15,676 nt of DNA, taken from NCBI GenBank assembly GCA_030591305.1, contig JAUVBI010000047.1, positions 1-15,676 on the forward strand, written 5' to 3'. This stretch comes from Pseudomonadota bacterium. Lineage in GTDB: Bacteria; Pseudomonadota; Gammaproteobacteria; Pseudomonadales; Halieaceae. Below the pieces are notes generated by a model. It was given only the letters and a program-made list of their open reading frames with translations. It had not been told where the DNA came from and searched no databases. Position numbers and translations under genes: made by a program. Shown piece by piece: positions 184 to 15,676 of this stretch. Position 1 is the first letter of the stretch; each line of letters begins with the position of its first letter.

Positions 184-1227
184 TTATTGCTGTGGAGCAA
201 GCAGGTAATAAGTCCCGCGTCCGACACCTTTGGCTTCAATTAGGCTCAACTGAATAAGTTTTTCAAAATCCAGTTTTCGCGACGCTAAACTGCGATCAGA
301 GATGGCACCATATTCTCGTTGCGTGATACTGCCTCGCTCGCGAATATAATCTAGTATTTGTTGATGATGCGGCTCTAATCTTGGTTTTGCTCGTAATTGT
401 TCTGGCAATATTTTAATCACACGACGTAATTCATCCAATATGCCTTCTGCAAAATATTCCAACCAAACAGAAAAATCGATATCATCTTTTAAATCGTAAT
501 AATCACCTTCAAGACCCACCGTTTTAAAGTAACGGGTAATATTCCGATTGTAATAGTCCTCGAAACTAAATATTTCAAACAGATCAAGTCCAGTTTTGCC
601 CAGAACAGCCGTCGTTAACAGTCGTGTTGTGCGGCCATTACCATCAATAAAAGGATGAATGATGACGTTCTGGCGATGAAAGATACCGGCAAGAATAACA
701 GGATCAATGTTCCCAATATTGTCATTCACAAAATCCATAAGACTTGTTGTAAGTTTTTCCACCTCTTTTGCATCTGGTGGAATAAAAACAATTTCATCGA
801 GTTTTCGTGGGTTGCGAATGATCACGGGGTCTTGGCGTAACACACCACAATGAGCGGGATTATCCATCAATCCTGCTACCACCTGCCCTTGAACCTGCTC
901 TAAGGTTTTAACATTCAATTCAAAGCGGTTTTGACGGACAGATTTAAATAATTTTTGCAAAGCTTTATTGTAATTGAGCACCTCTCGCTCAGTATCCCGA
1001 ACGCTTTCTTTGCGAGTTTTCAGCAAGCGCTTTACGTCGGTAAGTGGTAGTGGGTTACCCTCTATACTGGTCGAGGCATAAGATGATAACTCTCTGGCAC
1101 TTAGTTCTAATTTTGCCAAGGTAGTACCCGTAAGGTGCAGTGCTCCAATCTCACCGATAGACTCTCCAATTTTTCGGATAGTCAGGAGAAGTTTATTGCT
1201 TATCGTATATTTTGGATTCCAAGACAT
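184..1227 (-). CDS. Fic-domain protein (probable AMPylase) with C-terminal winged helix
   Basis: This 347-aa protein belongs to the Fic/DOC family, whose members usually transfer AMP from ATP onto a hydroxyl side chain of a target protein. The Fic core motif HPFIDGNGRTTR lies at residues 191-202, with the catalytic His at 191 and an intact phosphate-binding loop. An autoinhibitory (S/T)xxxE(G/N) motif, S52-G57 in the context TSIEGNP, lies N-terminal to it. That places the inhibitory glutamate on the same chain, as in class II Fic proteins such as SoFic. The last ~60 residues look like a winged-helix DNA-binding domain. Length and layout match full-length family members, and the gene seems intact. 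It stands alone: no separate antitoxin gene is visible. Five 11-bp direct repeats run into the start codon, so self-regulation is plausible. The target protein is unknown. Confidence 0.9.
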   Translation of the reverse strand: MSWNPKYTISNKLLLTIRKIGESIGEIGALHLTGTTLAKLELSARELSSYASTSIEGNPLPLTDVKRLLKTRKESVRDTEREVLNYNKALQKLFKSVRQNRFELNVKTLEQVQGQVVAGLMDNPAHCGVLRQDPVIIRNPRKLDEIVFIPPDAKEVEKLTTSLMDFVNDNIGNIDPVILAGIFHRQNVIIHPFIDGNGRTTRLLTTAVLGKTGLDLFEIFSFEDYYNRNITRYFKTVGLEGDYYDLKDDIDFSVWLEYFAEGILDELRRVIKILPEQLRAKPRLEPHHQQILDYIRERGSITQREYGAISDRSLASRKLDFEKLIQLSLIEAKGVGRGTYYLLAPQQ

Positions 1228-1279
1228 AGCCTTAAATTAGCCTATAACTAGCCGTAAATCAACCGTAAGTTAGCCGCAA
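1225..1279 (-). promoter_or_regulatory. Five tandem 11-bp repeats abutting the fic start codon
   Basis: Read on the minus strand, five consecutive 11-base units occupy 1269-1279, 1258-1268, 1247-1257, 1236-1246 and 1225-1235. They fit the consensus TTACGGCTAAT, and most units match it at eight or more of eleven positions. The last unit contains the ATG of the Fic gene. A period of 11 bp puts every copy on nearly the same face of the helix, as expected for cooperative binding of a protein array. The unit is not preserved further upstream (1280-1290). The Fic protein itself carries a winged helix and is the obvious candidate binder, but that is inference. Confidence 0.7.
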
Positions 1280-1340
1280 TCTTTCCAATCCGGGCCCAGT
1301 ATTCGATCTGTCGGGGTGGCGACCAACGAAGCGGTACAGG

Positions 1341-1990
1341 TTAGTTTTTACTGCCAATTAGCGCCGTCAGGGTTTTATCCAAAAGGTGCATGCTTTCATC
1401 GACTAAGGCATCCGTGATGGTTAGCGGCGGCAGAATACGAATAACATTACCTCGTATACCACGGGGAGTAAAATCAGCCCTTGCTGTGCGGCCTCGGCCA
1501 CAATTGCCGCAGTTAGTTCCGGGTTTGGCCGCTGGGCGCCCCCATCATGAACCAGTTCCATGGCGATCATCGCTCCCAGATTCCGAACGTCTCCAATGTG
1601 CTGAGGATACCGTGCTTGCATAGTTTGGAGTTGTAAAACAATGCGCTCACCAATCTCTGTAGCGCGGGCACACAAACCTTCCTTTTCGATAATATCCAGC
1701 ACCGCCAGGGCAGCTACGCAACCGACAGGAGAAACCCCCTGCAAGACCCTTCGCCAAGGTGATGAGGCCGGGCTCTACACCCACATGCTCACAGGCGAAC
1801 ATTTTCCCGGCACGAGCAAAACCAGATCAATATAGCGACGGCCCTCTACGTCCCACAATTCAGCATTCTCCGCACGCTCAATAAAGACGCTGGTTAGGGT
1901 GCCCTGCCCTCGTGCGAAGGCCTGGTCTTTTCTGGCTTGCAGAGACTGGTTGTCGTGCTTATTAAAACGCCGCTCTTTACTTGTATTCAT
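1341..1990 (-). pseudogene. gabT: Decayed GabT-like class III aminotransferase
   Basis: Fragments in different frames match the order of a PLP-dependent 4-aminobutyrate aminotransferase-type enzyme. The N-terminus (1990 to about 1823) ends with [11 protein letters not shown] second fragment in another frame (about 1823-1733) reads [18 protein letters not shown] and then [12 protein letters not shown], which holds the PLP-binding lysine. A third (about 1732-1470) starts [13 protein letters not shown] and includes the RNLGAMIAMELV block. A fourth, again frame-shifted, reads RGIRGNVIRILPPLT and ends at the stop codon at 1341-1343. The join after YIDL drops roughly 200 residues that family members have there, and the join GGF/SPVGC drops about 30. 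All joins change frame, so no functional enzyme can be made. Retention of clear motifs suggests fairly recent decay. Confidence 0.85.
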
Positions 1991-5193: not shown

Positions 5194-5880
5194 TTGAAAA
5201 CTACCGTTCTGGCTCGTCAGTGGCACTCAAGGCTAATGCTGGCCTGTGGTATACAGCTATTTATCTGGCTTGTCGGTGGGCTTTATATGGTGGCTATTAA
5301 CCTGAATTTTATTCATGGCGACCACCTTGTTAAAAATCTAGAAGTACCTCTGGCAGTACCCCCACAGCCTTTAGTAAAAACATCAGAAATTCTTTCACGC
5401 TTTGGCCCGGTCGAGTCAGTGACACTGATAACGATGCTGGAAAGGCCGGTATATATTGTAAAAAGTGGGCAGCGCTCCCATCTGCTGGACGCGATTACTA
5501 CCGAACAGTTATCTCCGATTAATGAAGCCATGGCAAAAAAACTGGCGCACTTTTACTACCGAGGTAATGCGACGATAGCTGGTATCGAATTGATTACCTC
5601 TAATCCACCAAGTGAAATTTATTCACGTCCACTGCCGCTGTGGCGCATTAATTTTGATGATGTAATAAATACCAGCTTTTACATAGACCCCAATACAGCG
5701 ACGTTAGTCACTCGACGCCACAGTTACTGGCGCCTGTTTGATGTGTTCTGGATGCTGCATATTATGGACTATGATTCACGCAGTGATGTAAATAACAATC
5801 TGTTGAAGTTTTTTGCAATGCTGAGCATATTGTCCATTATATTTGGTGGCATATTATTCTATCGAATCCGGAGGCATTGA
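5194..5880 (+). CDS. PepSY-type inner-membrane protein
   Basis: This 228-aa protein has a transmembrane segment at about 14-36, a periplasmic region with PepSY-like blocks (SEILSRFG followed by a VYIV strand; WRINFDD followed by FYIDPNTA) and a second transmembrane segment at about 203-223 ending in RIRRH. Histidines at 11 (RQWHSR) and 189 (FWMLHIMDY) lie next to the membrane segments and are also present in the neighbouring paralogue. Such positions serve as heme ligands in PepSY-TM reductases of the FoxB kind, so a heme-binding electron-transfer role is plausible. The start is TTG, supported by GGGAG at 5184-5188. It follows the TonB receptor gene and precedes its paralogue by four bases, so the three genes probably share a transcript. 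Electron donor and substrate are unknown. Confidence 0.75.
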   Translation: MKTTVLARQWHSRLMLACGIQLFIWLVGGLYMVAINLNFIHGDHLVKNLEVPLAVPPQPLVKTSEILSRFGPVESVTLITMLERPVYIVKSGQRSHLLDAITTEQLSPINEAMAKKLAHFYYRGNATIAGIELITSNPPSEIYSRPLPLWRINFDDVINTSFYIDPNTATLVTRRHSYWRLFDVFWMLHIMDYDSRSDVNNNLLKFFAMLSILSIIFGGILFYRIRRH

Positions 5881-5884
5881 GTTA

Positions 5885-6883
5885 ATGCTGGTATTACAGC
5901 GTGTGCATAAATGGTTGAGCTTGCTGATCGGTATTCAACTGCTACTTTGGCTGGTCAGTGGCTTGATGTTCAGCCTGCTCGATAGTGACGAAGTCAGAGG
6001 GCACAACAAGTATCGCGAAGCAACCATTGTATCGATTGATACTGGTGAAGCCCTGCTAAATCACAGTGAAATAATGGCTAAATATATTGATGCTGATGTC
6101 ACCGAAGTAATGTTGCATTATTTACTTGAACGGCCGGTGTATCGCCTGGTATTGGCAGACAGAGTGCTTTTGCTTGACGCAATAAGCGGGCTGCCCGTAG
6201 AAATTACCTCCACATTGGCCAAGCTTATTGTTATTCAATCTTATATGGGCGCCTCAGCCCTGGTTCAAGCACCGTATAAAGTAATGGCGCCTACGATGGA
6301 AGCGCGTCGCCACCACGGTGCCGTATGGCGCGTTGATATCGCAAACAAAAATAACACCACATGGTATGTCTCTGGCCAAGATGGGCAGATATTGGAACGC
6401 CGCAATGACAGCTGGCGTCTATTCGACTTCTTCTGGATGCTACACATCATGGATTATCAACAGCGAGAGAATTTTAATAACGCTCTTGTTATTTTTTCAG
6501 CAATGACTGGCATCTGGCTGGCATTATCGGGATTATTGCTATTGTTTAGCCGCATATCGTGGAAAATTTTTACCGCGCGCATCCACGCTCATCGCATGTA
6601 TACCATTCATCTATTAGATAGTAATGGCGTTAAGCAACGGAAGCTGCTGGTGTCGGGTGGGCACTCGCTGTTTTACACCTTGTCTACTCACGGGGTTCAA
6701 TTGCCTTCAACCTGTGCTGGCGGGGGTAGCTGCGGCCTTTGCCAATTACAAATGCCAGTGGATACTGCAATCTCTACCAGAGATCACTCACTGATTTCAC
6801 CCTTTCACCTGACTCAGGGCTATCGACTGGCATGTCAACACCGGGTTGATAAAGATATTCTTGTAACACTTACAAGCGCATAA
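5885..6883 (+). CDS. PepSY membrane protein fused to a 2Fe-2S ferredoxin domain
   Basis: The preferred start is the ATG at 5885, ten bases after GGAGG and four bases past the previous stop, giving 332 aa. An in-frame TTG at 5843 inside the upstream gene is less likely. Residues 1-220 repeat the architecture of the preceding protein: His8 beside a first membrane segment, two PepSY-like blocks, WRLFDFFWMLHIMDY with His187, and a membrane segment at about 200-222. A C-terminal domain (about 238-332) is a 2Fe-2S ferredoxin with ligands Cys277, Cys283, Cys286 and Cys317 (C-x5-C-x2-C-x30-C, motif CAGGGSCGLC), closest in style to the ferredoxin module of NqrF-type reductases. The topology puts the ferredoxin in the cytoplasm and PepSY in the periplasm. 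The inferred job is to carry electrons from a cytoplasmic reductase across the membrane, perhaps to a ligand brought in by the TonB receptor. Confidence 0.85.
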   Translation: MLVLQRVHKWLSLLIGIQLLLWLVSGLMFSLLDSDEVRGHNKYREATIVSIDTGEALLNHSEIMAKYIDADVTEVMLHYLLERPVYRLVLADRVLLLDAISGLPVEITSTLAKLIVIQSYMGASALVQAPYKVMAPTMEARRHHGAVWRVDIANKNNTTWYVSGQDGQILERRNDSWRLFDFFWMLHIMDYQQRENFNNALVIFSAMTGIWLALSGLLLLFSRISWKIFTARIHAHRMYTIHLLDSNGVKQRKLLVSGGHSLFYTLSTHGVQLPSTCAGGGSCGLCQLQMPVDTAISTRDHSLISPFHLTQGYRLACQHRVDKDILVTLTSA

Positions 6884-7100: not shown

Positions 7101-7676
7101 ATGTCCACTGCAACCAGCAATAGAATACTCGACTCTGCGGTTAGCTGCTTTCATCGAGATGGTATCGACAAAACCACGATGTCGAGCATCATTATCGAAT
7201 CGGGCCTTGCCAGAACGACAGTTTATCGCCACTTCCCCATCAAGGACGACATCATCTCCCGCCTGGTTCTACGGGACATCGACTACCTGATCAAATACGT
7301 AGATACAATTCGAGCACAGCACCAGGGTATTGAAGAGCAGTTAATTGAAACACTGGCTTTCGTCATCGGTGAAATTGGCACGCGACCTGTACTGGCCGAA
7401 CTGTTCTCCCAGGACCCCATTCGCCTGAACCGGTTGGGCCTGTCCAACAAGATCGTCATGTCCTACACCCACAATGCCATTAGGCCCACTTACGAGCTCA
7501 TTAAAGCTACCGGCGGCCTGCGCGACAGTGCCACCCTGGAAGATTTCTCAGAGTGGTGTAGCCGCGTAATCATGTCTTTTGTCATCACCCCGCACCACTA
7601 TCGAGACAATCCAGGGCGAATGCGAACGTATATTAAAAACTTTATCCTGCCATCCATGTTGAGAGGCGACCGATGA
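7101..7676 (+). CDS. TetR-family transcriptional regulator
   Basis: This 191-aa protein has a TetR-type N-terminal helix-turn-helix: RILDSAVSCFHRDGIDKTTM, then IIIESGLARTTVYRHFPIKDD at about residues 30-50. The C-terminal part is a helical ligand-binding and dimerisation domain with no recognisable subgroup signature. TetR proteins usually repress and are released by a small-molecule ligand. Its stop codon overlaps the start of the molybdoenzyme gene (ATGA at 7673-7676), so regulator and enzyme are co-transcribed and likely coupled in translation. The inferred role is sensing the enzyme's substrate or product and controlling the operon through the palindrome at 6957-6990. Confidence 0.9.
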   Translation: MSTATSNRILDSAVSCFHRDGIDKTTMSSIIIESGLARTTVYRHFPIKDDIISRLVLRDIDYLIKYVDTIRAQHQGIEEQLIETLAFVIGEIGTRPVLAELFSQDPIRLNRLGLSNKIVMSYTHNAIRPTYELIKATGGLRDSATLEDFSEWCSRVIMSFVITPHHYRDNPGRMRTYIKNFILPSMLRGDR

Positions 7677-10645
7677 TAAGCAATGAGAATCAAGGAACAC
7701 TCTCCAGACGCCGCTTTATGCAAGTAACAGGCACCCTCGCCATGGCGGCGGGAGGCGGGCTGCCGTTATTTCACTTTCGTCGGGCCCAGGCAGCAACCGG
7801 AAACAACCGCCATCCTGAAAAACTCAGTAACTGGGAGGACCTGTACCGCCAGCGCTGGAGCTGGGACTATATCGCCAAGGGCTCCCACGGCTGGGTAAAT
7901 TGTCGCTCGGCCTGTGAATGGGACCTGTATGTTAAGGACGGCATCGTAGTGCGTGAGGAGCAAACGGCCACCTATGAAGCATCCGAGCCCGGCGTACCAG
8001 ACTTCAATCCCCGTGGTTGCCAAAAGGGTGCCTGTTACACCGATGTGATGTACGGCCCGTCCCGTACAACTGTCCCATTGAAACGGGCAGGAGAACGCGG
8101 CGGTGGCAAATGGGAAAAGATCAGCTGGGATCAGGCGATCGATGAAATTGCCCACAAAATGATCGATATCGCCAAGGTGCACGGGGCAGACACACATTAC
8201 ACCGACCTGGGGCCAAACTTTGACTTTGGCGCCACTACCATGGGCCGATTTAAATTCCTGCATATGTCCGGTGGCACCTTCGCCGATAACTGGGGGGAAA
8301 TAGGCGACCTCAATATCGGCGCCACCATGACTGTGGGTGCCGCTCATATTGGCGGCTCCTCCGATGAGTGGTTCTTGTCAGACTATCTGGTCGTCTGGAT
8401 GATGAACCCCTCGGTGACACAGATCGCCGATGCCCACTTCCTTTATGAAGCGAAATACAACGGTTCTGAACTGGTAGTCATCGACCCCCAATACAGTGCT
8501 ACCGCCGTTCATGCCGATCAATGGATACCGTTGCGCTCAGCCACGGATGCTGCGCTGGCCATGGCTACTGCTCGCCATATCTGGGACAGCGGCAACATCG
8601 ACCTCCCCTATGTGCGAGAACAGACCGACTTACCCATTCTGGTCCGCCTGGACACAGGTCGCTTCCTGCGTGAGGCCGACCTGCTTGAGGGCGGTCGCCG
8701 CAAACTGCTTTATATGTGGGACCCTGCAGCCAACAAGCCCGTAGAGGCACCTGGCACGCAAGAGAGCGAACAAAATCTCATTCGACTGCCAGAGGGTTTT
8801 AAACCACCCATAGAAGGCAGCTTCGAGGTCACTTTAAAGGGCGGTGAAACAATCAGTGTGGCTCCGGTCGGCTCATTGCTGAAGGAAAACCTGGAACCCT
8901 GGACCTTCGAAAAAACGGCAGAAGTTACCGGCCTGTCTGTCGCACAAATCCGCCACTTTGCCGAGGGCTTTGCCAACGCAGAACGGCCCATGGTGCTGTC
9001 CAGCTGGGGCGCCAATCGCTACGTGCATTCCGACCTGATGAATCGGGCCAAGCTACTATGCCTGGCACTGAAGGGTGCTATCGGTAAAAAAGGTGCCGGC
9101 TACCAGGGCTGTGGCTGGGTAGACCTGGGTGGCTTTGGGTTAAATTTACAAGTAGAGCACGAGGGTATACGCGGGAAACTGGGCATGATGCTGGACCTGA
9201 TGAGCCCCAGCGACCTGTGGCATATGACCATGGACATCATGATGAAGCGCAAGACCCAGGAGCAGGTCACCCGCGATGTCGAGCGCAAGTACGAGGCCGA
9301 AATACTGTGCGCCACCAACGTAACGTCCATGGGCCTGCATCATCAAGACGTATTGTCCGATATGGACAGAGACCTGAAAGACGACTACCCCCGCCCCTTC
9401 AGTGAATACTTTGACGAGTCTGTAGAAAAAGGCTGGGATATGAGCCTGCCGCGCAGTGGCTCCCCGAAAATTTTCTTCAGCGGTGGCTCCAACCTGATTC
9501 GTCGCACGAACAACACCCAGAAGTTTATCGACAATGTCTGGAACAAAATGGAGTTGATAGTCGATATCAACCCCAAGTTCTCCTACACCGCATTGCAGTC
9601 AGATTATATTCTTCCCGCCGCTGGCTACTACGAGAAGTCGGGCATCAAATACAGCGTTTCCTATATTCCCTATGTTCATTACTGTGATGCTGCGGTACCC
9701 CCCCTGGGTGAAGCCAAAGACGAGTACGAATTCTATTGGCTGCTCAGCAAACGCATCGAGGAACTTGCCATAGAACAGGATCTCCCAGTATTTGACGGCT
9801 GCGGCAAACTGCCCACCGACTGGAAGACCCTGAACCAACGTTATTCCAGCCACGGGCAGTTCGGCCCCAAAGATGCAGAGAAGGTCTCGGATGCCATTTT
9901 AGCCGACAGTCATGCCACGGCTGGTGTCACTGTCGAGCAGCTGAAGAAAACCGGTATCGCCAAGTACACCTCTACCGGCGACAATGTTGGCCCCACCGCT
10001 CTGTATAACCCGGACTGGAAGGGGGAAGGTGTGCTCACTACCATGACCCAGTTCACTGAGCACAAGGACCACTGGCCAACTTACTCGGGACGAATCACTA
10101 CCTACATTGACCACCCCTGGTTTATTGAGGCCAGGGAAAGCATGGCCACCCATAAAGAGAGCCCAAAGGCAGGCGGCGACCACCCCTTCCAGATGGTCTC
10201 CTGTCATTCACGGTGGTCAATCCACTCCACCTGGCGAGATACACCCCTGTTATTGCGCATGCAACGGGGTGAGCCAGTGATGTACATTAACCCTGTCGAA
10301 GCGAAACAACTGAGTATCGCCGACCACGACTATGCCGAGCTGTATAACGACTACGGTACGGTCACCATGCGGATAAAATACTCCACCATGGTGCGCCCGG
10401 GAGTCGCTTACTACTTCCACGCCTGGGAACCCAATCAGTTCCCCAATCACGAAAGTTATAAATGGTTGATTCCCGGACTGGTAAATCCCCTGCATCTCAG
10501 CGGTGATTATTATCAGCTACAGCATGGTGTAAATAAATATCAGCCGGGAACTGCCGTTCAAGATACGCGCATCGGCATTCGGGCTATTGACCAGGCCTCT
10601 GTAGAAAACCCCAACCCAACAACTACAGCGAAGCTTGAATCATGA
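7673..10645 (+). CDS. Type II DMSO-reductase-family molybdoenzyme, catalytic alpha subunit
   Basis: This 990-aa periplasmic oxidoreductase should bind bis-MGD molybdenum and one Fe-S cluster. A twin-arginine signal (SRRRFM, residues 11-16) with a hydrophobic stretch and A-Q-A near residue 40 directs Tat export. The FS0 cluster region has His72, Cys77, Cys81 and Cys116, where a leading His rather than Cys marks the NarG/EbdA branch. Asp212 in WGEIGD aligns with the Asp molybdenum ligand of type II enzymes. MGD-binding blocks follow (LVVIDPQYSATA; ILPAAGYYEKSG; the C-terminal HSRWSIHSTW region). The length is nearer ethylbenzene dehydrogenase or steroid C25 dehydrogenase alpha subunits (about 970-980) than the ~910 of dimethylsulfide, selenate or chlorate enzymes. 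It heads an alpha-beta-gamma-chaperone operon. Water-dependent hydroxylation of a hydrocarbon or sterol side chain is a reasonable inference; the substrate is not determinable here. Confidence 0.9.
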   Translation: MISNENQGTLSRRRFMQVTGTLAMAAGGGLPLFHFRRAQAATGNNRHPEKLSNWEDLYRQRWSWDYIAKGSHGWVNCRSACEWDLYVKDGIVVREEQTATYEASEPGVPDFNPRGCQKGACYTDVMYGPSRTTVPLKRAGERGGGKWEKISWDQAIDEIAHKMIDIAKVHGADTHYTDLGPNFDFGATTMGRFKFLHMSGGTFADNWGEIGDLNIGATMTVGAAHIGGSSDEWFLSDYLVVWMMNPSVTQIADAHFLYEAKYNGSELVVIDPQYSATAVHADQWIPLRSATDAALAMATARHIWDSGNIDLPYVREQTDLPILVRLDTGRFLREADLLEGGRRKLLYMWDPAANKPVEAPGTQESEQNLIRLPEGFKPPIEGSFEVTLKGGETISVAPVGSLLKENLEPWTFEKTAEVTGLSVAQIRHFAEGFANAERPMVLSSWGANRYVHSDLMNRAKLLCLALKGAIGKKGAGYQGCGWVDLGGFGLNLQVEHEGIRGKLGMMLDLMSPSDLWHMTMDIMMKRKTQEQVTRDVERKYEAEILCATNVTSMGLHHQDVLSDMDRDLKDDYPRPFSEYFDESVEKGWDMSLPRSGSPKIFFSGGSNLIRRTNNTQKFIDNVWNKMELIVDINPKFSYTALQSDYILPAAGYYEKSGIKYSVSYIPYVHYCDAAVPPLGEAKDEYEFYWLLSKRIEELAIEQDLPVFDGCGKLPTDWKTLNQRYSSHGQFGPKDAEKVSDAILADSHATAGVTVEQLKKTGIAKYTSTGDNVGPTALYNPDWKGEGVLTTMTQFTEHKDHWPTYSGRITTYIDHPWFIEARESMATHKESPKAGGDHPFQMVSCHSRWSIHSTWRDTPLLLRMQRGEPVMYINPVEAKQLSIADHDYAELYNDYGTVTMRIKYSTMVRPGVAYYFHAWEPNQFPNHESYKWLIPGLVNPLHLSGDYYQLQHGVNKYQPGTAVQDTRIGIRAIDQASVENPNPTTTAKLES

Positions 10646-11673
10646 AATACCACATAGCTAAACCCACCCGCCAAGTCGCAATGGTGCTGGATTTAAACAA
10701 GTGTCTGGGGTGCCACACCTGCTCAGTAGCCTGCAAAAAGATGTGGAATACCGACAGCGGCACCGATTACAGTTACTGGAACAATGTAGAAACCCTGCCC
10801 GGCAAGGGCTTTCCCAGGCAATGGGACGAGATAGGCGGACGCACCGCCCAGGGTGAGGTCAAGCGCGGTAAAGTGCCCAACCTGGACAGCGAATATGGCC
10901 GTGCCTGGAATTTCAATCACAGCTCGGTGATCGCCACTGATGCGAGTAGCGGCAAGAAGGAATGGTTAAAACCAAAGGGCAAACCAAGCTGGGGGCCCAA
11001 CTGGGATGAAGATGAGGGCACAGGCGTCTACCCGAAAGACAACCATTACTTCTATATGCCCAGGCTGTGCAACCACTGCACCGAACCCGCCTGCCTGGAT
11101 GCCTGCCCCCGTAAATCCATCTACAAGCGCGAGGAAGACGGCATCGTACTGGTAAACCAGGACAAGTGTCATGGTTATCGCTTCTGTGTCGAAGCCTGCC
11201 CCTACAAGAAAGTCTATTACGATTACCAGCGCCAGGTAGCGGCCAAGTGCATCTTCTGTATGCCGCGTATTGAAGAGGGTGTGGCACCTGCCTGCGCACG
11301 CCAGTGTCCCGGGCGCCTGCGCTTTGTCGGGTTTCGCGATGACCGCGAGGGGCCAATCTGGAAACTGGTAGAAAAGTACAAAGTAGCAATACCGCTGCAC
11401 CCTGAATACGGCCTGGGGCCCAATGTCTTTTACGTGCCACCCATGAGCCCGGAAAAACTCGATAATCAGGGAAACCCCACCGGCGAGCCCCGCATTCCCC
11501 TGGCTTATCTTGAAAATCTGTTCGGCCCGGATGTAAACCGGGCTCTGGCAACGGTTGAAGCCGAGCGGGCAAAACGCAAACGGGGGGAAGCCAGTGAGTT
11601 GATGGACATCCTCATCGCCTACAACTGGAACGATAACTTCAAGCTTGATGCCAAAGCACGGGAGGTCATCTAA
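10642..11673 (+). CDS. Molybdoenzyme beta subunit, four-cluster Fe-S electron-transfer protein
   Basis: This 343-aa NarH/EbdB/DdhB-type subunit passes electrons between the alpha subunit and the heme subunit. Four cysteine groups are visible: C21-C24-C27-C31; C143-C146-C151-C155; C176-C182-C186; and C203-C206-C218-C222. In the third group the position taken by a cysteine in 4Fe-4S clusters is Tyr179 (CHGYRFC), as expected for a 3Fe-4S cluster; nitrate reductase has Trp there. There is no signal peptide, so the protein should be exported bound to the Tat-tagged alpha subunit. The start overlaps the alpha stop by four bases, and the stop overlaps the gamma start by one base (TAATG), which points to tight translational coupling and equal stoichiometry. 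Confidence 0.93.
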   Translation: MKYHIAKPTRQVAMVLDLNKCLGCHTCSVACKKMWNTDSGTDYSYWNNVETLPGKGFPRQWDEIGGRTAQGEVKRGKVPNLDSEYGRAWNFNHSSVIATDASSGKKEWLKPKGKPSWGPNWDEDEGTGVYPKDNHYFYMPRLCNHCTEPACLDACPRKSIYKREEDGIVLVNQDKCHGYRFCVEACPYKKVYYDYQRQVAAKCIFCMPRIEEGVAPACARQCPGRLRFVGFRDDREGPIWKLVEKYKVAIPLHPEYGLGPNVFYVPPMSPEKLDNQGNPTGEPRIPLAYLENLFGPDVNRALATVEAERAKRKRGEASELMDILIAYNWNDNFKLDAKAREVI

Positions 11674-12248
11674 TGGGTGAAACATTTAATTCTGGAACAA
11701 GAGCCTTCGACACTCTCCCACTGATTGCGGCACCTCCTGCCATGCAGCCCGGAGGCTACGTCCCCGAGGCCTATAAAGACCGCTTGCAGGCGGTAACTCC
11801 CACCGTGGATTTCTCCGCCATCCAACAGGGAAAGGGCTGGGTTATTGAGCTTCGCTGGGACTGCCCCAGCCCCGTTAAAAGTATCGCCAACGAGACCGAT
11901 TTGTTCACCGACGCAGCAGCAATATTGACGCCCGGCACCATGAAGGCCCCCTGGTTAACCATGGGTGCGCCCGACCATCCTGTAGAGGCCGCTCTGTGGC
12001 GAGCAGACAAAAGCCAACTCTACCGTATGCACGCACAGGGCCTGGGCACAATGGACCGAAGTACACCTCCAGATTCCTGGTCCGTTGATGCCAATTGGGA
12101 AAACGGTCGCTGGAATCTCCGCTACCTGATTGGCGATTGGCCGGTGCTCAACCAGTTTGGGCGAATTGGCGTGGCCATCTGGCGCGGTGAAAACCGGGAC
12201 AGGGGCGGTCTAAAGTCCGTCACCGAAGGCTGGGTTGCGGTGGGGTAG
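11673..12248 (+). CDS. Molybdoenzyme gamma subunit, ethylbenzene-dehydrogenase-type heme-b protein
   Basis: This 191-aa protein resembles the DdhC/EbdC/SerC group, which binds one heme b through a Met and a Lys and hands electrons to a periplasmic cytochrome. Candidate ligands are Met97 (WLTMGAP) and Lys181 in the typical C-terminal block GLKSVTEGW. The blocks WVIELRWDCP and WNLRYL fit the beta-sandwich core. Unlike many family members, there is no hydrophobic signal peptide: the N-terminus is MGETFNSGTRAFDTLPL. The subunit would therefore have to leave with the Tat-exported complex, or this start is not the true one, though no alternative upstream start fits because the beta gene lies there. 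It is somewhat shorter than EbdC. Confidence 0.8.
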   Translation: MGETFNSGTRAFDTLPLIAAPPAMQPGGYVPEAYKDRLQAVTPTVDFSAIQQGKGWVIELRWDCPSPVKSIANETDLFTDAAAILTPGTMKAPWLTMGAPDHPVEAALWRADKSQLYRMHAQGLGTMDRSTPPDSWSVDANWENGRWNLRYLIGDWPVLNQFGRIGVAIWRGENRDRGGLKSVTEGWVAVG

Positions 12249-12255
12249 TACATAC

Positions 12256-12753
12256 GTGGATACAGTAAATTCGGAACAAGCTCTGGTGATGATCGCATGG
12301 TCACGAATTTGGAGCCCGCTGGTCGATGAAGAGCTTCGCGACGCGGCCTGGCAGGCACTGGGGCTTCCCGACGATTACCAACGTCATAAGGCTGATTACT
12401 GGACAACATTTCATGTTGGCGCGCCCGAACCCGAGGCATCGTTAATCCTGCACGCCGCCTTACATCGGGAGGGCGCGGGAGTAAGGGAAGACTGGCTGCG
12501 TATAATAAGTTATCTTGGACTGTGCTGGGATGATGTTCACTTACCACCAGACCAACTCGGCGCCGCCTGTGAGGTCTATGCCTGTGCAATTGAGCGGCAG
12601 GAGCGGGTGCTTGTTGACGAGCTGCGAGATCGTTACCTCTCGCCTTGGAGCGATGTGGCATGCCAGAGCTTGATGCGAAGTAAATCCCCCTTGCTGCCGC
12701 TGGCAGAATGTTTCAGAGGAGACCTGGCCCTCATAGGCAGCCCTAAGACATAA
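12256..12753 (+). CDS. TorD/DdhD-family molybdoenzyme maturation chaperone
   Basis: This all-helical protein of about 165 aa matches the family of cytoplasmic chaperones that bind the apo catalytic subunit and its Tat signal until cofactor insertion is complete (NarJ/TorD/DdhD/EbdD). Visible hallmarks are the helical N-terminus (ALVMIAWSRIWSPLVDEELR), the ADYWTTFHVG region, a central acidic WDDVHLPPDQLGAACEVYAC segment and the closing helix with a DRYLSPWSD block. The preferred start is GTG at 12256, preceded by a G-rich stretch (GGTGGGG, 12239-12245). A TTG at 12235, which would overlap the gamma gene by 14 bases and add seven residues, is possible. Identification rests partly on position as the fourth gene after alpha, beta and gamma, because this family has low sequence conservation. 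Confidence 0.8.
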   Translation: MDTVNSEQALVMIAWSRIWSPLVDEELRDAAWQALGLPDDYQRHKADYWTTFHVGAPEPEASLILHAALHREGAGVREDWLRIISYLGLCWDDVHLPPDQLGAACEVYACAIERQERVLVDELRDRYLSPWSDVACQSLMRSKSPLLPLAECFRGDLALIGSPKT

Positions 12754-12790
12754 AAATTAGATTACTATCCCGATAATGGAAGGACCCAAT

Positions 12791-15076
12791 ATGCCTCGTG
12801 TCACACAACGCAAAGAGTTCACTGTCGCCATCTCTGGTGCACTTGCCCAGCGCAGGATGAATAAACGGCCCGGCTCTTCTGTATTGATACGCGAAGAAGT
12901 GGGCTTTCGCATGGGTATCGCTGCCACTCTTGCCGACACAGCCTGCCAGGCTGCCCAACTTGTCAGTAAAAGCTACACTCGCTGGCTAAAGCATGGCCTC
13001 GATGAAGAAAGTGGTCATTATCGGCAAAACCACTTCACCATCGCTGTTGGTGGCGGAAATACGGTGAAGGCCGAGTATCGCGCCCTGCTGGAGCACCATC
13101 ACAGCACCATAGACTGGATTAAACATGTCCGGTTCTTTTTTCTGGAAGAGTCCTCCGGTGAAAAAAACTGGGAGAGTTCCAGAGAGGCTCTAATTGAAGA
13201 GTTTCTCTCCCCCCTCGCCAACAAACTTCTCAAGCTTAACCGCCCCCGTACCCTGGCAAAACAATTGGGCATGACTGCAACCGCCAGTAGAGACGACATT
13301 ACCACACGCCTTATAGCAACCATGGTTAACACCATTAACCTGGTGGAAGTTAAAAAGGCCCTGCGCGGCAAAAATAAGACGCTGGCAAAAAAATTGGCCC
13401 AACGCGAAAGCGGCCGCTACCAGCGCGATATTAAAAAGAAACTGGGAAGTGCCATGGCATTTCACATGATTATCAGCGGCATCGGCAAGGATGGCTGTAT
13501 TGGCGCACTTTCGCCCTATACCCCAGAACTTAAGAGCAAGCGCCCCGGCACTGTGGTACTTCAGCAGGAAAATGGCAGCCTGCGCGTGGCCCTCAACCGC
13601 GGCGTTTTTATAGGAGCCGATTGCGTATCCTTAATTATTTCTGGAAATCACAAGCTGAAAGCCCTGGGCCGGTTCGAAATGGAAGAGGCTGCCGATTTTG
13701 AGCAGACGGTACTGGAAACACCCTTGCGCATGTTGCGTGAGACCAAAGAGATTGCACAAAAAGTGTATATCTTTGCCGACGAGCAGGCCCTGCATGTCGA
13801 TGAAACAACTTTCAAATACACAGACGACGGCAACACAATAGAAATCAAAGCCGAAAGCCGCCAGGGGGAAGAAGAAAGCGGCATACACATTCTGTTAATG
13901 CACGGTTTTATGGGGCTGTTCAGCTACACCAGCCTTCTGTTGCGCCTTCCCAGCGCCTGGACCGTCTCGGCACTGCACCGGGGAAGCCACGCCAAGAGCT
14001 TGGAGGACGATGAAATATTTCGGCACTATGCCCTGTCCCTGCGCAAGGCCATATTAAAAAACTGGCGGTGCGGGCGGCCCGTTCCCATTGTCGGGCACTC
14101 AATTGCGGGTGTGATCATTGACCATCTGCTGCTGTCCATAATTGGTGATTATGACGGGCCAATACCTCCCTATAGCAAATTAAAAAGTGAAGATAGGCAA
14201 CTGGTGGATGCCCTGCGTACTGGCGGCATTATTAACCTGGCCACCTGGGCGCCTGTGGATGTCGTCAACACGGAGAAAAATGTTAAGAGCCTGGTATCCC
14301 ATTTGCGCCATAAAACCCCCCTGAATTACTCCGGTTTGGACCCGGTTTACAAGGAAGATTTCGAGGGCCAACTACAGCCCCACGACTTGGCCGCCCCACT
14401 GGATGACGATGCCCTGGACGGCCTGGGTAAATTCCTGGCAATACCTGGAGCCCGGCATTTCGTCCACGGTTTGAATGCGGTGGCACGCACCGTACTGAGA
14501 AGCAAAAAAGTGCAGCAAAAAATGTTGAACAGGAATAACCCTTATATTTTGCGTATCGTGGGCAGCAGGCTACTTAAAAAAATATCGTTCTACGGCATGC
14601 TAAAAGAAGTCAATGCCGCCCTGCACGACCCCAGGGAGTACCAGACCAGACACATCAAAACACTGGATATCATTCTCAACTATGATATCCCCCTGTTGAG
14701 CATTATCCACAAAGACGACTTTCTGGTCTCTGCAAACCGCCATCGTGAAGAACAGCAATATCTGCTGGCAAGACGATTGACGAAAGAGGGCGTTACAAGG
14801 GAAGAAGATCTCCGTATACCCGCGCGCTACCTGCTTCTTGAGCGCGAACAGGGTGAGTTACCCGTTGATGTGTTGAACCCCCACTTACTGATAATGTCTA
14901 CCTCAAACGAGGGCAACAAAATAGTTCGCCAGATCACCTCGGCGATCACTGTATTCGTCAATGAGAATGTTGCCAGGACTATGGCAGACGGCCAACTGGA
15001 ACCCCTCGCCAGTGTCAAAAAGTGGCTGGGGAAAAACAAGGCTGTTAAACGTCAGCGCAAAGCAAGATATAACTAA
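12791..15076 (+). CDS. Fusion of degenerate 6-phosphogluconolactonase/NagB-like domain with an alpha/beta-hydrolase
   Basis: The ATG at 12791 sits just after GGAAGGA (12778-12784), giving 761 aa; an ATG at 12776 lies upstream of that site and is less likely. Residues ~30-330 follow the order of the 6PGL/glucosamine-6-phosphate isomerase fold: FTIAVGGGNTVKAEY (82-96), VRFFFLEES (113-121), then GIGKDGCIGALSP (230-242). The last corresponds to the family's G-x-G-x-D-G-H motif, with Cys236 in place of the catalytic His. The DER block is EES. A lysine-rich insertion lies at ~185-222. Residues ~366-740 are an alpha/beta-hydrolase: oxyanion HGFM (371-374), nucleophile elbow GHSIAG with Ser437, a cap region, and acid candidates Asp642/Asp643; the catalytic His is not certain (His698 is the best candidate). 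There is no signal peptide, so it is probably cytoplasmic. It follows the molybdoenzyme chaperone by 37 bases and probably ends the operon. Its function is unknown; hydrolysis of an ester, lactone or ring-cleavage product of the pathway is a guess. Confidence 0.75.
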   Translation: MPRVTQRKEFTVAISGALAQRRMNKRPGSSVLIREEVGFRMGIAATLADTACQAAQLVSKSYTRWLKHGLDEESGHYRQNHFTIAVGGGNTVKAEYRALLEHHHSTIDWIKHVRFFFLEESSGEKNWESSREALIEEFLSPLANKLLKLNRPRTLAKQLGMTATASRDDITTRLIATMVNTINLVEVKKALRGKNKTLAKKLAQRESGRYQRDIKKKLGSAMAFHMIISGIGKDGCIGALSPYTPELKSKRPGTVVLQQENGSLRVALNRGVFIGADCVSLIISGNHKLKALGRFEMEEAADFEQTVLETPLRMLRETKEIAQKVYIFADEQALHVDETTFKYTDDGNTIEIKAESRQGEEESGIHILLMHGFMGLFSYTSLLLRLPSAWTVSALHRGSHAKSLEDDEIFRHYALSLRKAILKNWRCGRPVPIVGHSIAGVIIDHLLLSIIGDYDGPIPPYSKLKSEDRQLVDALRTGGIINLATWAPVDVVNTEKNVKSLVSHLRHKTPLNYSGLDPVYKEDFEGQLQPHDLAAPLDDDALDGLGKFLAIPGARHFVHGLNAVARTVLRSKKVQQKMLNRNNPYILRIVGSRLLKKISFYGMLKEVNAALHDPREYQTRHIKTLDIILNYDIPLLSIIHKDDFLVSANRHREEQQYLLARRLTKEGVTREEDLRIPARYLLLEREQGELPVDVLNPHLLIMSTSNEGNKIVRQITSAITVFVNENVARTMADGQLEPLASVKKWLGKNKAVKRQRKARYN

Positions 15077-15117: not shown

Positions 15118-15145
15118 TTGCGCTCCATACGGTGTCTCCTATATT
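15118..15145 (+). promoter_or_regulatory. Sigma70-like promoter for the secreted acidic protein gene
   Basis: A -35-like TTGCGC (15118-15123) and a -10-like TATATT (15140-15145) are separated by 16 bases in the 100-bp gap after the fusion gene. A ribosome binding site GGAG (15165-15168) lies eight bases before the next ATG. This suggests the following gene has its own transcript. No intrinsic terminator was seen between the two genes. Confidence 0.45.
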
Positions 15146-15176
15146 GTATCTACAACGCATAAATGGAGAAATCAAA

Positions 15177-15676
15177 ATGACTAGCCCTATTCGAATGCCT
15201 ATTTTGGAAAACTGGTTTATTGCCCTGTTGCTGTCTCTGGCACTGGGGCTTTGCTCACTGACCTCCCAGCAGGCCTTTGCCGACGAGGCAGACAACGATA
15301 CGCAAATAGAAGAACATGCCGATGATCCAGAGGAGGATGACGACTCAGACGACGATGATGATGATGACAATCCCAAAGGCAACAAGGGGAAAAACAAGGG
15401 TAATCAGGGCAAGAACAAAAGCGGCGATGATGATTCCGACGAAATCGCTAAAGGGGGCAAGCCCCACTGCCAGAAAAGTGCCCAGTACTTGTTTCTCGCC
15501 TGCAAGCACCTGACCCAGGCGGCGCGCTGGGAAGGGCTGGCTGAATGTGAAAACACTCTGGACCGAGACGAGCGCAGTGACTGCATTACTCTGAACAGGG
15601 AGTTTTTTGCCAGTGACAAGCAAAGCTGCCGCACCCAGAGAAATTCCCGCAAGGGCGTTTGCGAAGAAGTAGGCCG
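15177..15676 (+). CDS. Secreted acidic, Cys-patterned protein, 3' end outside the window
   Basis: The ATG at 15177 opens a frame with 166 codons in view and no stop before the window ends. Residues ~13-36 form a signal peptide (hydrophobic FIALLLSLALGLCSLTS, then QQAFA/DE). Then comes an acidic stretch with a run of eight Asp interrupted once by Ser, a Gly/Asn/Lys-rich linker (GNKGKNKGNQGKNK), a second short acidic patch, and a helical-looking domain with six cysteines. Cysteine spacings are x10, x14, x11, x14, x10, which read the same in both directions and suggest disulfide-linked helical hairpins in the periplasm or outside the cell. I do not recognise the family. Metal or calcium binding by the acidic tract is possible but not shown. 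Codon use looks normal for the region. Confidence 0.75.
   Translation, partial: MTSPIRMPILENWFIALLLSLALGLCSLTSQQAFADEADNDTQIEEHADDPEEDDDSDDDDDDDNPKGNKGKNKGNQGKNKSGDDDSDEIAKGGKPHCQKSAQYLFLACKHLTQAARWEGLAECENTLDRDERSDCITLNREFFASDKQSCRTQRNSRKGVCEEVG

What the first reader, a model, noticed from the sequence alone, without database searches (positions are those of the whole stretch)
12791..15076. Two-domain protein joining an altered 6PGL/NagB-like domain to an alpha/beta-hydrolase
The N-terminal half keeps the block order of 6-phosphogluconolactonase/glucosamine-6-phosphate isomerase, but the catalytic His of G-x-G-x-D-G-H is Cys236, the DER block is EES, and a basic insertion of about 35 residues is present. 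The C-terminal half has a clean oxyanion HG and a GHS nucleophile elbow. I know of no characterised enzyme with this layout. It sits at the end of a molybdoenzyme operon, so it may act on that pathway's product, with the first domain serving as a binding module or a new catalytic site.
Basis: partly seen in the sequence, partly recalled or inferred. Interest (0 to 1): 0.75.

Follow-up and report, generated by a model that had tools for sequence, protein, structure and literature searches.

The report
Hydrolase fused to a dead sugar-phosphate enzyme
A conserved but undescribed protein of marine bacteria joins an intact-looking ester-cutting enzyme to a sugar-phosphate enzyme fold that has lost its catalytic residue but kept its binding pocket, which suggests a ligand-sensing enzyme in fat or hydrocarbon use.

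Summary
Window 12791-15076 (+) encodes one 761-aa protein whose halves are predicted with good confidence to fold as 6PGL/NagB (36-336) and alpha/beta-hydrolase (about 332-738). It is not a joining artefact: full-length fusions recur in 28 distinct loci and in 23 of 140 Halieaceae genomes.

The anion-loop motifs stay invariant. The hydrolase residues Ser437, Asp643 and His698 are intact in 127 of 127 covered rows. A canonical 6PGL exists separately in 20 of 25 fusion-bearing genomes.

Best reading: a serine ester hydrolase whose N-terminal domain is a catalytically dead, still binding, 6PGL fold that docks or senses an acidic ligand. Context leans to lipid and hydrocarbon use: Fe-alcohol dehydrogenase directly downstream in 14 of 28 loci, RND/DUF1302/DUF1329 clusters, and higher wax-ester-synthase copy number (median 11.5 against 4.5 in size-matched genomes, not corrected for ancestry). 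The molybdoenzyme link is seen in this clade only (2 of 28 loci). Substrate, ligand and coupling are untested.

The parts
12791..15076 (+). Gene for the 761-aa fusion protein (6PGL/NagB-like fold plus alpha/beta-hydrolase); stop codon included
12896..13798 (+). Residues 36-336: 6PGL/NagB-fold domain, catalytic His lost, anion-loop motifs kept
13049..13069 (+). Residues 87-93, GGGNTVK: phosphate-loop motif (role recalled from 6PGL/NagB); G88, G89, N90, T91 and K93 unchanged in 130 of 130 rows
13145..13153 (+). Residues 119-121, EES, in the place of DER; E119 kept in 128 of 130 rows
   Evidence: HMM alignment to 6PGL
13154..13282 (+). Residues 122-164: segment that holds the about 31-44 residue helical insertion relative to two solved 6PGLs
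   Evidence: HMM alignments, secondary structure, charge
13484..13498 (+). Residues 232-236, GKDGC: degenerate GxDGH; position 236 is His in 0 of 130 rows, position 234 is D 86, N 40, K 3, E 1
13652..13654 (+). Lys288, unchanged in 130 of 130 rows, in the GxxK motif of the 6PGL pocket
13787..14989 (+). Residues about 333-733: alpha/beta-hydrolase domain, with a large mostly helical cap at about 451-632 (limits by eye from the secondary structure)
13901..13909 (+). Residues 371-373, HGF: presumed oxyanion-side motif; H371 130 of 130
14099..14101 (+). Ser437, presumed nucleophile (127 of 127 covered rows)
14717..14719 (+). Asp643, presumed triad acid (127 of 127 covered rows)
14882..14884 (+). 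His698, presumed triad base (127 of 127 covered rows)
7673..12753 (+). Upstream type II DMSO-reductase-family operon: alpha 7673-10645, beta 10642-11673, gamma 11673-12248, chaperone-like 12235-12753 (weak model match, E 0.018); ends 37 nt before the fusion
   Evidence: chaperone-to-fusion order also in L001

Best explanation
It is a two-domain serine hydrolase, probably cytoplasmic (no signal-peptide test was run). The C-terminal alpha/beta-hydrolase (Ser437-Asp643-His698, with a large cap) most likely cuts an ester bond in a lipid- or hydrocarbon-derived substrate such as a wax ester, acylglycerol or other fatty ester. The released alcohol and acid would go to the alcohol dehydrogenase, acyl-CoA ligase and oxidation genes that sit beside it in several lineages. 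The N-terminal domain is a 6PGL/NagB fold that no longer performs the 6PGL or NagB reaction. It keeps the anion-binding pocket and serves as a docking or sensing module for a phosphorylated or acidic ligand that places the substrate or switches the hydrolase. Shown: both folds by prediction, conserved triad residues, loss of the DGH acid/base, pocket conservation, recurrence of the fusion. Inferred: ester hydrolysis, the lipid substrate, ligand binding, and coupling of the two domains.
For: Folds. Triad in 127 of 127 covered rows, His236 in 0 of 130. 33 pocket-motif positions that I chose are more conserved than the rest of the N-domain (mean majority identity 0.89 against 0.69, Mann-Whitney p 6e-7). 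Separate canonical 6PGL (G[ML]GxDGHTAS) in 20 of 25 fusion-bearing genomes, so this is not the pentose-phosphate enzyme there. Fe-ADH directly downstream on the same strand in 14 of 28 loci: 13 by sequence cluster (Pfam run on L005 only) plus L002, which the ORF picker missed and one search shows (G037:C105). An orthologue at 70% identity or more is in 13 of 23 fusion genomes against 2 of 117 others. YCF48-RND-DUF1302-DUF1329 genes directly downstream in L062, L064 and L065 and about 3 kb downstream in L011. A set with DUF1302, DUF1329 and an HAE3 RND pump in Castellaniella (AmeABCD) is proposed to export monoterpenes (PMC6394551, abstract and one passage). Acyl-CoA ligases beside L014, L061 and L063 and P450s beside L014; beta-lactamase-fold protein and WS/DGAT beside L011. 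WS/DGAT in 23 of 23 fusion genomes against 64 of 117 others; in genomes of 3.4 Mb or more, median matches 11.5 (22 genomes) against 4.5 (40), p 2.6e-6, AUC 0.86. By first-look candidates AUC is 0.83 for WS/DGAT, 0.69 for P450, 0.67 for sulfatase.
Against: No assay; triad geometry was not measured. No Pfam alpha/beta-hydrolase model is hit even at E<=1. The elbow is not strictly GxSxG (position 435 is G in 106 of 129 rows with a residue there). Association tests ignore shared ancestry, and DUF6524, which looks like a syntenic bystander, gives a small p as well (19 of 23 fusion genomes against 31 of 117 others, p 6e-7). WS/DGAT lies within the fetched flanks in only 3 of 28 loci, near chance by hand arithmetic. 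The directly adjacent RND sets belong to one clade. Fe-ADH is also found without the fusion, and 14 of 28 fusions lack it next door, the window among them as far as the sequence goes.
Confidence: 0.42

Rival explanations
1. Bifunctional enzyme: the first domain has a new catalytic chemistry at the old 6PGL site, using Glu119 (in the place of the DER/DEY Asp) and the added Arg270, and passes its product to the hydrolase.
For: E119 kept in 128 of 130 rows; K93, R114, R270, K288, E309, R313 and R316 in 130 of 130; the pocket motifs are more conserved than the rest of the domain.
Against: Positions 234 and 236 of the GxDGH loop drift among D/N/K/E and T/A/G/C/S/D, never His, so no acid/base is held there; Cys236 is present in 9 of 130 rows only.
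Confidence: 0.15
2. The hydrolase acts specifically on a product of the upstream molybdenum hydroxylase pathway, for example an ester or lactone derived from a hydroxylated hydrocarbon or steroid side chain.
For: 37-nt gap after the chaperone-like gene; the same chaperone-to-fusion order in L001, whose genome carries alpha subunits 95-96% identical; the alpha subunit's best solved matches are a type II enzyme (5e7o, 4ydd) and ethylbenzene dehydrogenase (2ivf).
Against: 26 of 28 loci have other upstream neighbours; 22 of 25 fusion genomes have no alpha subunit match at E<=1e-60; L004, the third member of the clade, has a sulfatase gene and secDF beside the fusion.
Confidence: 0.15
3. The first domain is only a folded scaffold or dimerisation unit for the hydrolase, with no ligand.
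For: The active-site acid/base is lost; some NagB/6PGL alignments run on to residues 588-594 in the cap, which hints at direct packing of cap and N-domain.
Against: G88, G89, N90, T91, K93 and K288 are unchanged in 130 of 130 rows and the pocket motifs exceed the rest of the domain in conservation, which a bare scaffold does not need.
Confidence: 0.15
4. It is a thioesterase or acyltransfer hydrolase in which the 6PGL-like domain (same superfamily as CoA transferases, recalled) holds the CoA phosphates.
For: Acyl-CoA ligase neighbours, enoyl-CoA hydratase-family neighbours in L018, conserved basic residues in the pocket motifs.
Against: No positive evidence of CoA binding: no CoA motif was tested and nothing among the listed structural matches singles it out (which cannot exclude it).
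Confidence: 0.13

Closest known systems
6-phosphogluconolactonase (PF01182 / TIGR01198; T. brucei 2j0e, 3e7f)
   Different: Catalytic His lost (0 of 130), DER is EES, insertion of about 31-44 residues, below the TIGR01198 cut-off (40.1 against 124.45 bits), fused to a hydrolase; canonical 6PGL coexists in 20 of 25 genomes
Glucosamine-6-phosphate deaminase NagB (1dea, 3hn6)
   Different: The Asp and His of the GxDGH-type loop are not kept
GDH/6PGL endoplasmic bifunctional protein (8em2)
   Same: A 6PGL domain fused to another enzyme (name)
   Different: Its partner is a dehydrogenase, not an alpha/beta-hydrolase
Serine alpha/beta-hydrolases with caps (aryl esterases, tricorn factor F1, gastric lipase; monoglyceride lipase by Foldseek)
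   Different: No Pfam alpha/beta-hydrolase model matched, long cap, relaxed elbow, N-terminal 6PGL-fold domain; rows are tied, so no subfamily is assigned

Membership tests
6-phosphogluconolactonase | PF01182 domain above gathering score | tested here: met
   56.8 bits against 27
6-phosphogluconolactonase | TIGR01198 equivalog cut-off | tested here: not met
   40.1 bits against 124.45
6-phosphogluconolactonase | Catalytic His of GxGxDGH (role recalled) | tested here: not met
   His in 0 of 130 rows and 0 of 28 loci
6-phosphogluconolactonase | 6PGL fold | tested here: met
6-phosphogluconolactonase | Hydrolysis of 6-phosphogluconolactone | not testable with these tools
   needs an assay
Glucosamine-6-phosphate deaminase (NagB) | Asp and His of the loop equivalent to GxDGH (roles recalled) | tested here: not met
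   position 234 D in 86 of 130, position 236 never His
Alpha/beta-hydrolase superfamily | Fold | tested here: met
Alpha/beta-hydrolase superfamily | Nucleophile, acid and His in order and conserved | tested here: met
   S437, D643, H698 in 127 of 127 covered rows of 130
Alpha/beta-hydrolase superfamily | Triad geometry | not testable with these tools
Alpha/beta-hydrolase superfamily | Match to a Pfam alpha/beta-hydrolase model | tested here: not met
   none at E<=1; a helpful but not a defining feature
Haloalkane dehalogenase / epoxide hydrolase | Asp nucleophile at the elbow (recalled) | tested here: not met
   Ser at 437 in 129 of 129 rows with a residue there
Wax-ester/neutral-lipid hydrolase | Association with neutral-lipid genes | tested here: inconclusive
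   copy-number association p 2.6e-6 without ancestry correction; close linkage in 3 of 28 loci only
Wax-ester/neutral-lipid hydrolase | Hydrolysis of long-chain esters | not testable with these tools
   needs an assay

The most novel reading that the evidence does not exclude
A new class of ligand-gated lipid hydrolase: a dead 6PGL-fold domain reads a central-carbon sugar phosphate (or another acidic metabolite) and, through contact with the hydrolase cap, turns storage-ester mobilisation on or off, so that neutral-lipid turnover is coupled directly to pentose-phosphate or hexosamine status.
Probability: 0.15. Interest if true: 0.75.

Novelty: new variant of a known kind. Interest (0 to 1): 0.5.

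Why it matters
Several sources name members of this family 6-phosphogluconolactonase or glucosamine-6-phosphate isomerase, but the defining catalytic His is absent from all 130 rows examined, so the name misleads and hides a conserved candidate serine hydrolase. If the first domain binds a sugar phosphate, the family would be a direct link between central carbon status and lipid or hydrocarbon turnover in marine Halieaceae, testable with one purified protein.

Tried and rejected
Joining or sequencing artefact: rejected. Fusions recur in 28 distinct loci. Two apparent split pairs (P0154 with P0125, P0155 with P0136; paired by equal contig length) were inspected: the upstream piece of each ends in a run that departs from the family sequence, as after a frameshift. 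They were left as they are.

Stand-alone relatives of each half: searches with the halves (A2 and A3) gave 28 and 20 proteins, eight of them in both lists, all reading as members or fragments of this same family; seven sequences were read. The search is word-based and scored only about 8000 candidates each time, so distant stand-alone relatives are not excluded. Sequence search of solved structures found weak 6PGL matches for the N-half, with some unrelated ones of similar E-value, and nothing credible for the C-half.

Cys236 as nucleophile: rejected. The fusion as the cell's own 6PGL: rejected for 20 of 25 genomes; in G001, G005, G120, G125 and G128 no canonical 6PGL was seen (G128 has a NagB-like one), which may reflect incomplete assemblies.

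DUF6524 as a functional partner: it lies in the next two genes in at least 17 of 28 loci (15 by cluster, plus L012 and L019), but 31 of 117 Halieaceae genomes without the fusion also have it, so it may be fixed synteny beside polysaccharide genes and pyrF.

WS/DGAT physical linkage: 3 of 28 loci (L011, L020, L064), about 1.5 expected by hand arithmetic from copy number, so not used as linkage evidence. RND set: DUF1329 has 2-15 matches per genome in the 11 genomes searched, so a single-clade adjacency is only suggestive. My ORF picker missed the Fe-ADH of L002 and the DUF6524 of L012 and L019; the tree labels therefore count L002 as lacking Fe-ADH.

Papers: '6-phosphogluconolactonase' with 'alpha beta hydrolase' and 'fusion protein' (0 papers), with 'hydrolase domain' and 'fused' (3, unrelated by listing), with 'wax ester' (7, unrelated by listing), with 'pseudoenzyme' (0), with 'Halioglobus' (1, listing only). 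PMC10351704 and PMC11061730: passages only; in neither does the term phosphogluconolactonase (or gluconolactonase) occur. No paper on the 6PGL or NagB mechanism was read (listing only); catalytic roles of their residues are recalled.

Chain families absent from the VIA-align rows (for example CoA transferases) are not excluded.

Full report
WHAT IS THERE. The reading frame 12776-15076 (+) is open; the ATG at 12791 follows GGAAGG by 7 nt and gives 761 residues, the length also listed for the same protein in the public set (P0001). Numbering below starts at that ATG. Pfam sees only PF01182; NCBIfam sees the 6-phosphogluconolactonase model below its cut-off.

A REAL FAMILY. The full-length protein has 266 relatives at E<=1e-3, and the 120 listed cover 91-99% of the query. 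A genome scan with two peptide patterns gave 20 loci. A search of 140 genomes of the family around HTCC2148 (taken as Halieaceae from record titles) gave 23 genomes with the fusion, two of them with two copies, after dropping one 34-residue match. In an even sample of 390 genomes of the order, 7 have it. After removing 13 duplicates, 28 distinct loci remain, the window included. The tree places the window with L001 and L004 with full support. Two apparent split genes end like frameshifts.

FIRST DOMAIN: POCKET KEPT, CATALYSIS LOST. In the 130 rows aligned (120 listed relatives, three more, seven loci), G88, G89, N90, T91, K93, R114, G235, G238, R270, K288, E309, R313 and R316 never change, and E119, in the place of the Asp of DER, is kept in 128. 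The His of GxGxDGH is absent from all 130 (T 88, A 12, G 11, C 9, S 8, D 2), and position 234 is D 86, N 40, K 3, E 1. In the 28 loci the same holds (236: T 12, G 7, A 4, S 2, Q 1, D 1, C 1). That loop therefore holds no acid/base, and the window's Cys is one of several tolerated residues. Thirty-three pocket-motif positions of my choice are more conserved than the rest of the domain (0.89 against 0.69). Twenty of 25 fusion-bearing genomes carry a separate canonical 6PGL with G[ML]GxDGHTAS.

SECOND DOMAIN: INTACT RESIDUES. Ser437, Asp643 and His698 are present in 127 of 127 rows that cover them; His371 in 130 of 130. The elbow is relaxed at position 435. With Ser as nucleophile the domain is expected to be an esterase, lipase, thioesterase or similar; that is inference from fold and residues. 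No Pfam hydrolase model matches at E<=1.

NEIGHBOURS. In 14 of 28 loci an Fe-dependent alcohol dehydrogenase follows directly on the same strand (13 by cluster, with Pfam run on L005; L002). An orthologue at 70% identity or more is in 15 of 140 genomes, 13 of them fusion-bearing, yet it also occurs where no fusion was found beside it (L098 to L103). In L062, L064 and L065 a YCF48-like protein, an MMPL/RND pump, DUF1302 and DUF1329 follow (domains scanned in L062, the others by sequence cluster). L011 has the same set about 3 kb downstream, with a beta-lactamase-fold protein and a WS/DGAT between. In Castellaniella defragrans AmeABCD, with DUF1302, DUF1329 and an HAE3 RND pump, is proposed to export monoterpenes (PMC6394551: abstract and one passage). 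L014 has P450s and an acyl-CoA ligase, L061 and L063 an acyl-CoA ligase, L018 two enoyl-CoA hydratase-family genes. Other neighbours point elsewhere, for example a sulfatase and secDF beside L004, glycosyltransferases upstream in L013, and a transporter upstream in L012.

LIPID ASSOCIATION. WS/DGAT (PF03007) is found in 23 of 23 fusion genomes and 64 of the other 117. Among the 62 genomes of at least 3.4 Mb, median matches are 11.5 with the fusion (22 genomes) and 4.5 without (40), p 2.6e-6, AUC 0.86, while genome size does not differ (p 0.46). By first-look candidates, which run past the scoring cap, AUC is 0.83 for WS/DGAT, 0.69 for P450 (p 0.013) and 0.67 for sulfatase (p 0.033). Shared ancestry is not corrected for; DUF6524, a likely syntenic bystander, also gives p 6e-7. 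WS/DGAT is close by in only 3 of 28 loci, near chance.

MOLYBDOENZYME OPERON. The fusion starts 37 nt after a chaperone-like gene that ends a type II DMSO-reductase-family operon. L001, 82% identical in the fusion, begins within the same chaperone gene, followed by the fusion, and its genome has alpha subunits 95-96% identical to the window's. L004, the third member of the clade, has other neighbours, as do the other 25 loci. Among 25 fusion genomes only G001, G005 and G037 have an alpha-like match at E<=1e-60. So the link is real but local.

VERDICT. Substrate, ligand and coupling remain inference. No description of the family was found in the searches named.

Noticed in passing
window 5194-6883: Two consecutive proteins with weak PepSY-TM similarity (below cut-off), the second with a C-terminal 2Fe-2S ferredoxin domain (PF00111), behind a TonB receptor.
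   Followed up: no
G005 (genome of L014; record title says Myxococcota): 16 matching places for type II DMSO-reductase alpha subunits (some are pieces of one gene), two of them 57-61% identical to the window's, in a genome that also carries the fusion.
   Followed up: partly
G001 contigs C192 and C234 (L104, L107): The nearest relative holds two copies of the window's molybdoenzyme alpha gene (95-96% aa identity), whereas its fusion is 82% identical: very different rates.
   Followed up: partly
window 15132-15674: Asp-rich ORF of no Pfam family after the fusion, apparently with a signal sequence (by eye); DNA similarity (73% over 231 nt) at the same place in L001.
   Followed up: partly
window 184-1744 (-): A Fic-like ORF (HPFIDGNGRTTR, motif recalled) and a short ORF that looks like the end of a class-III aminotransferase (recalled, not scanned).
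   Followed up: no
G037, G048, G049, G050: Very many WS/DGAT genes per genome: 17 scored matches, the apparent cap, with 24 to 36 first-look candidates.
   Followed up: no
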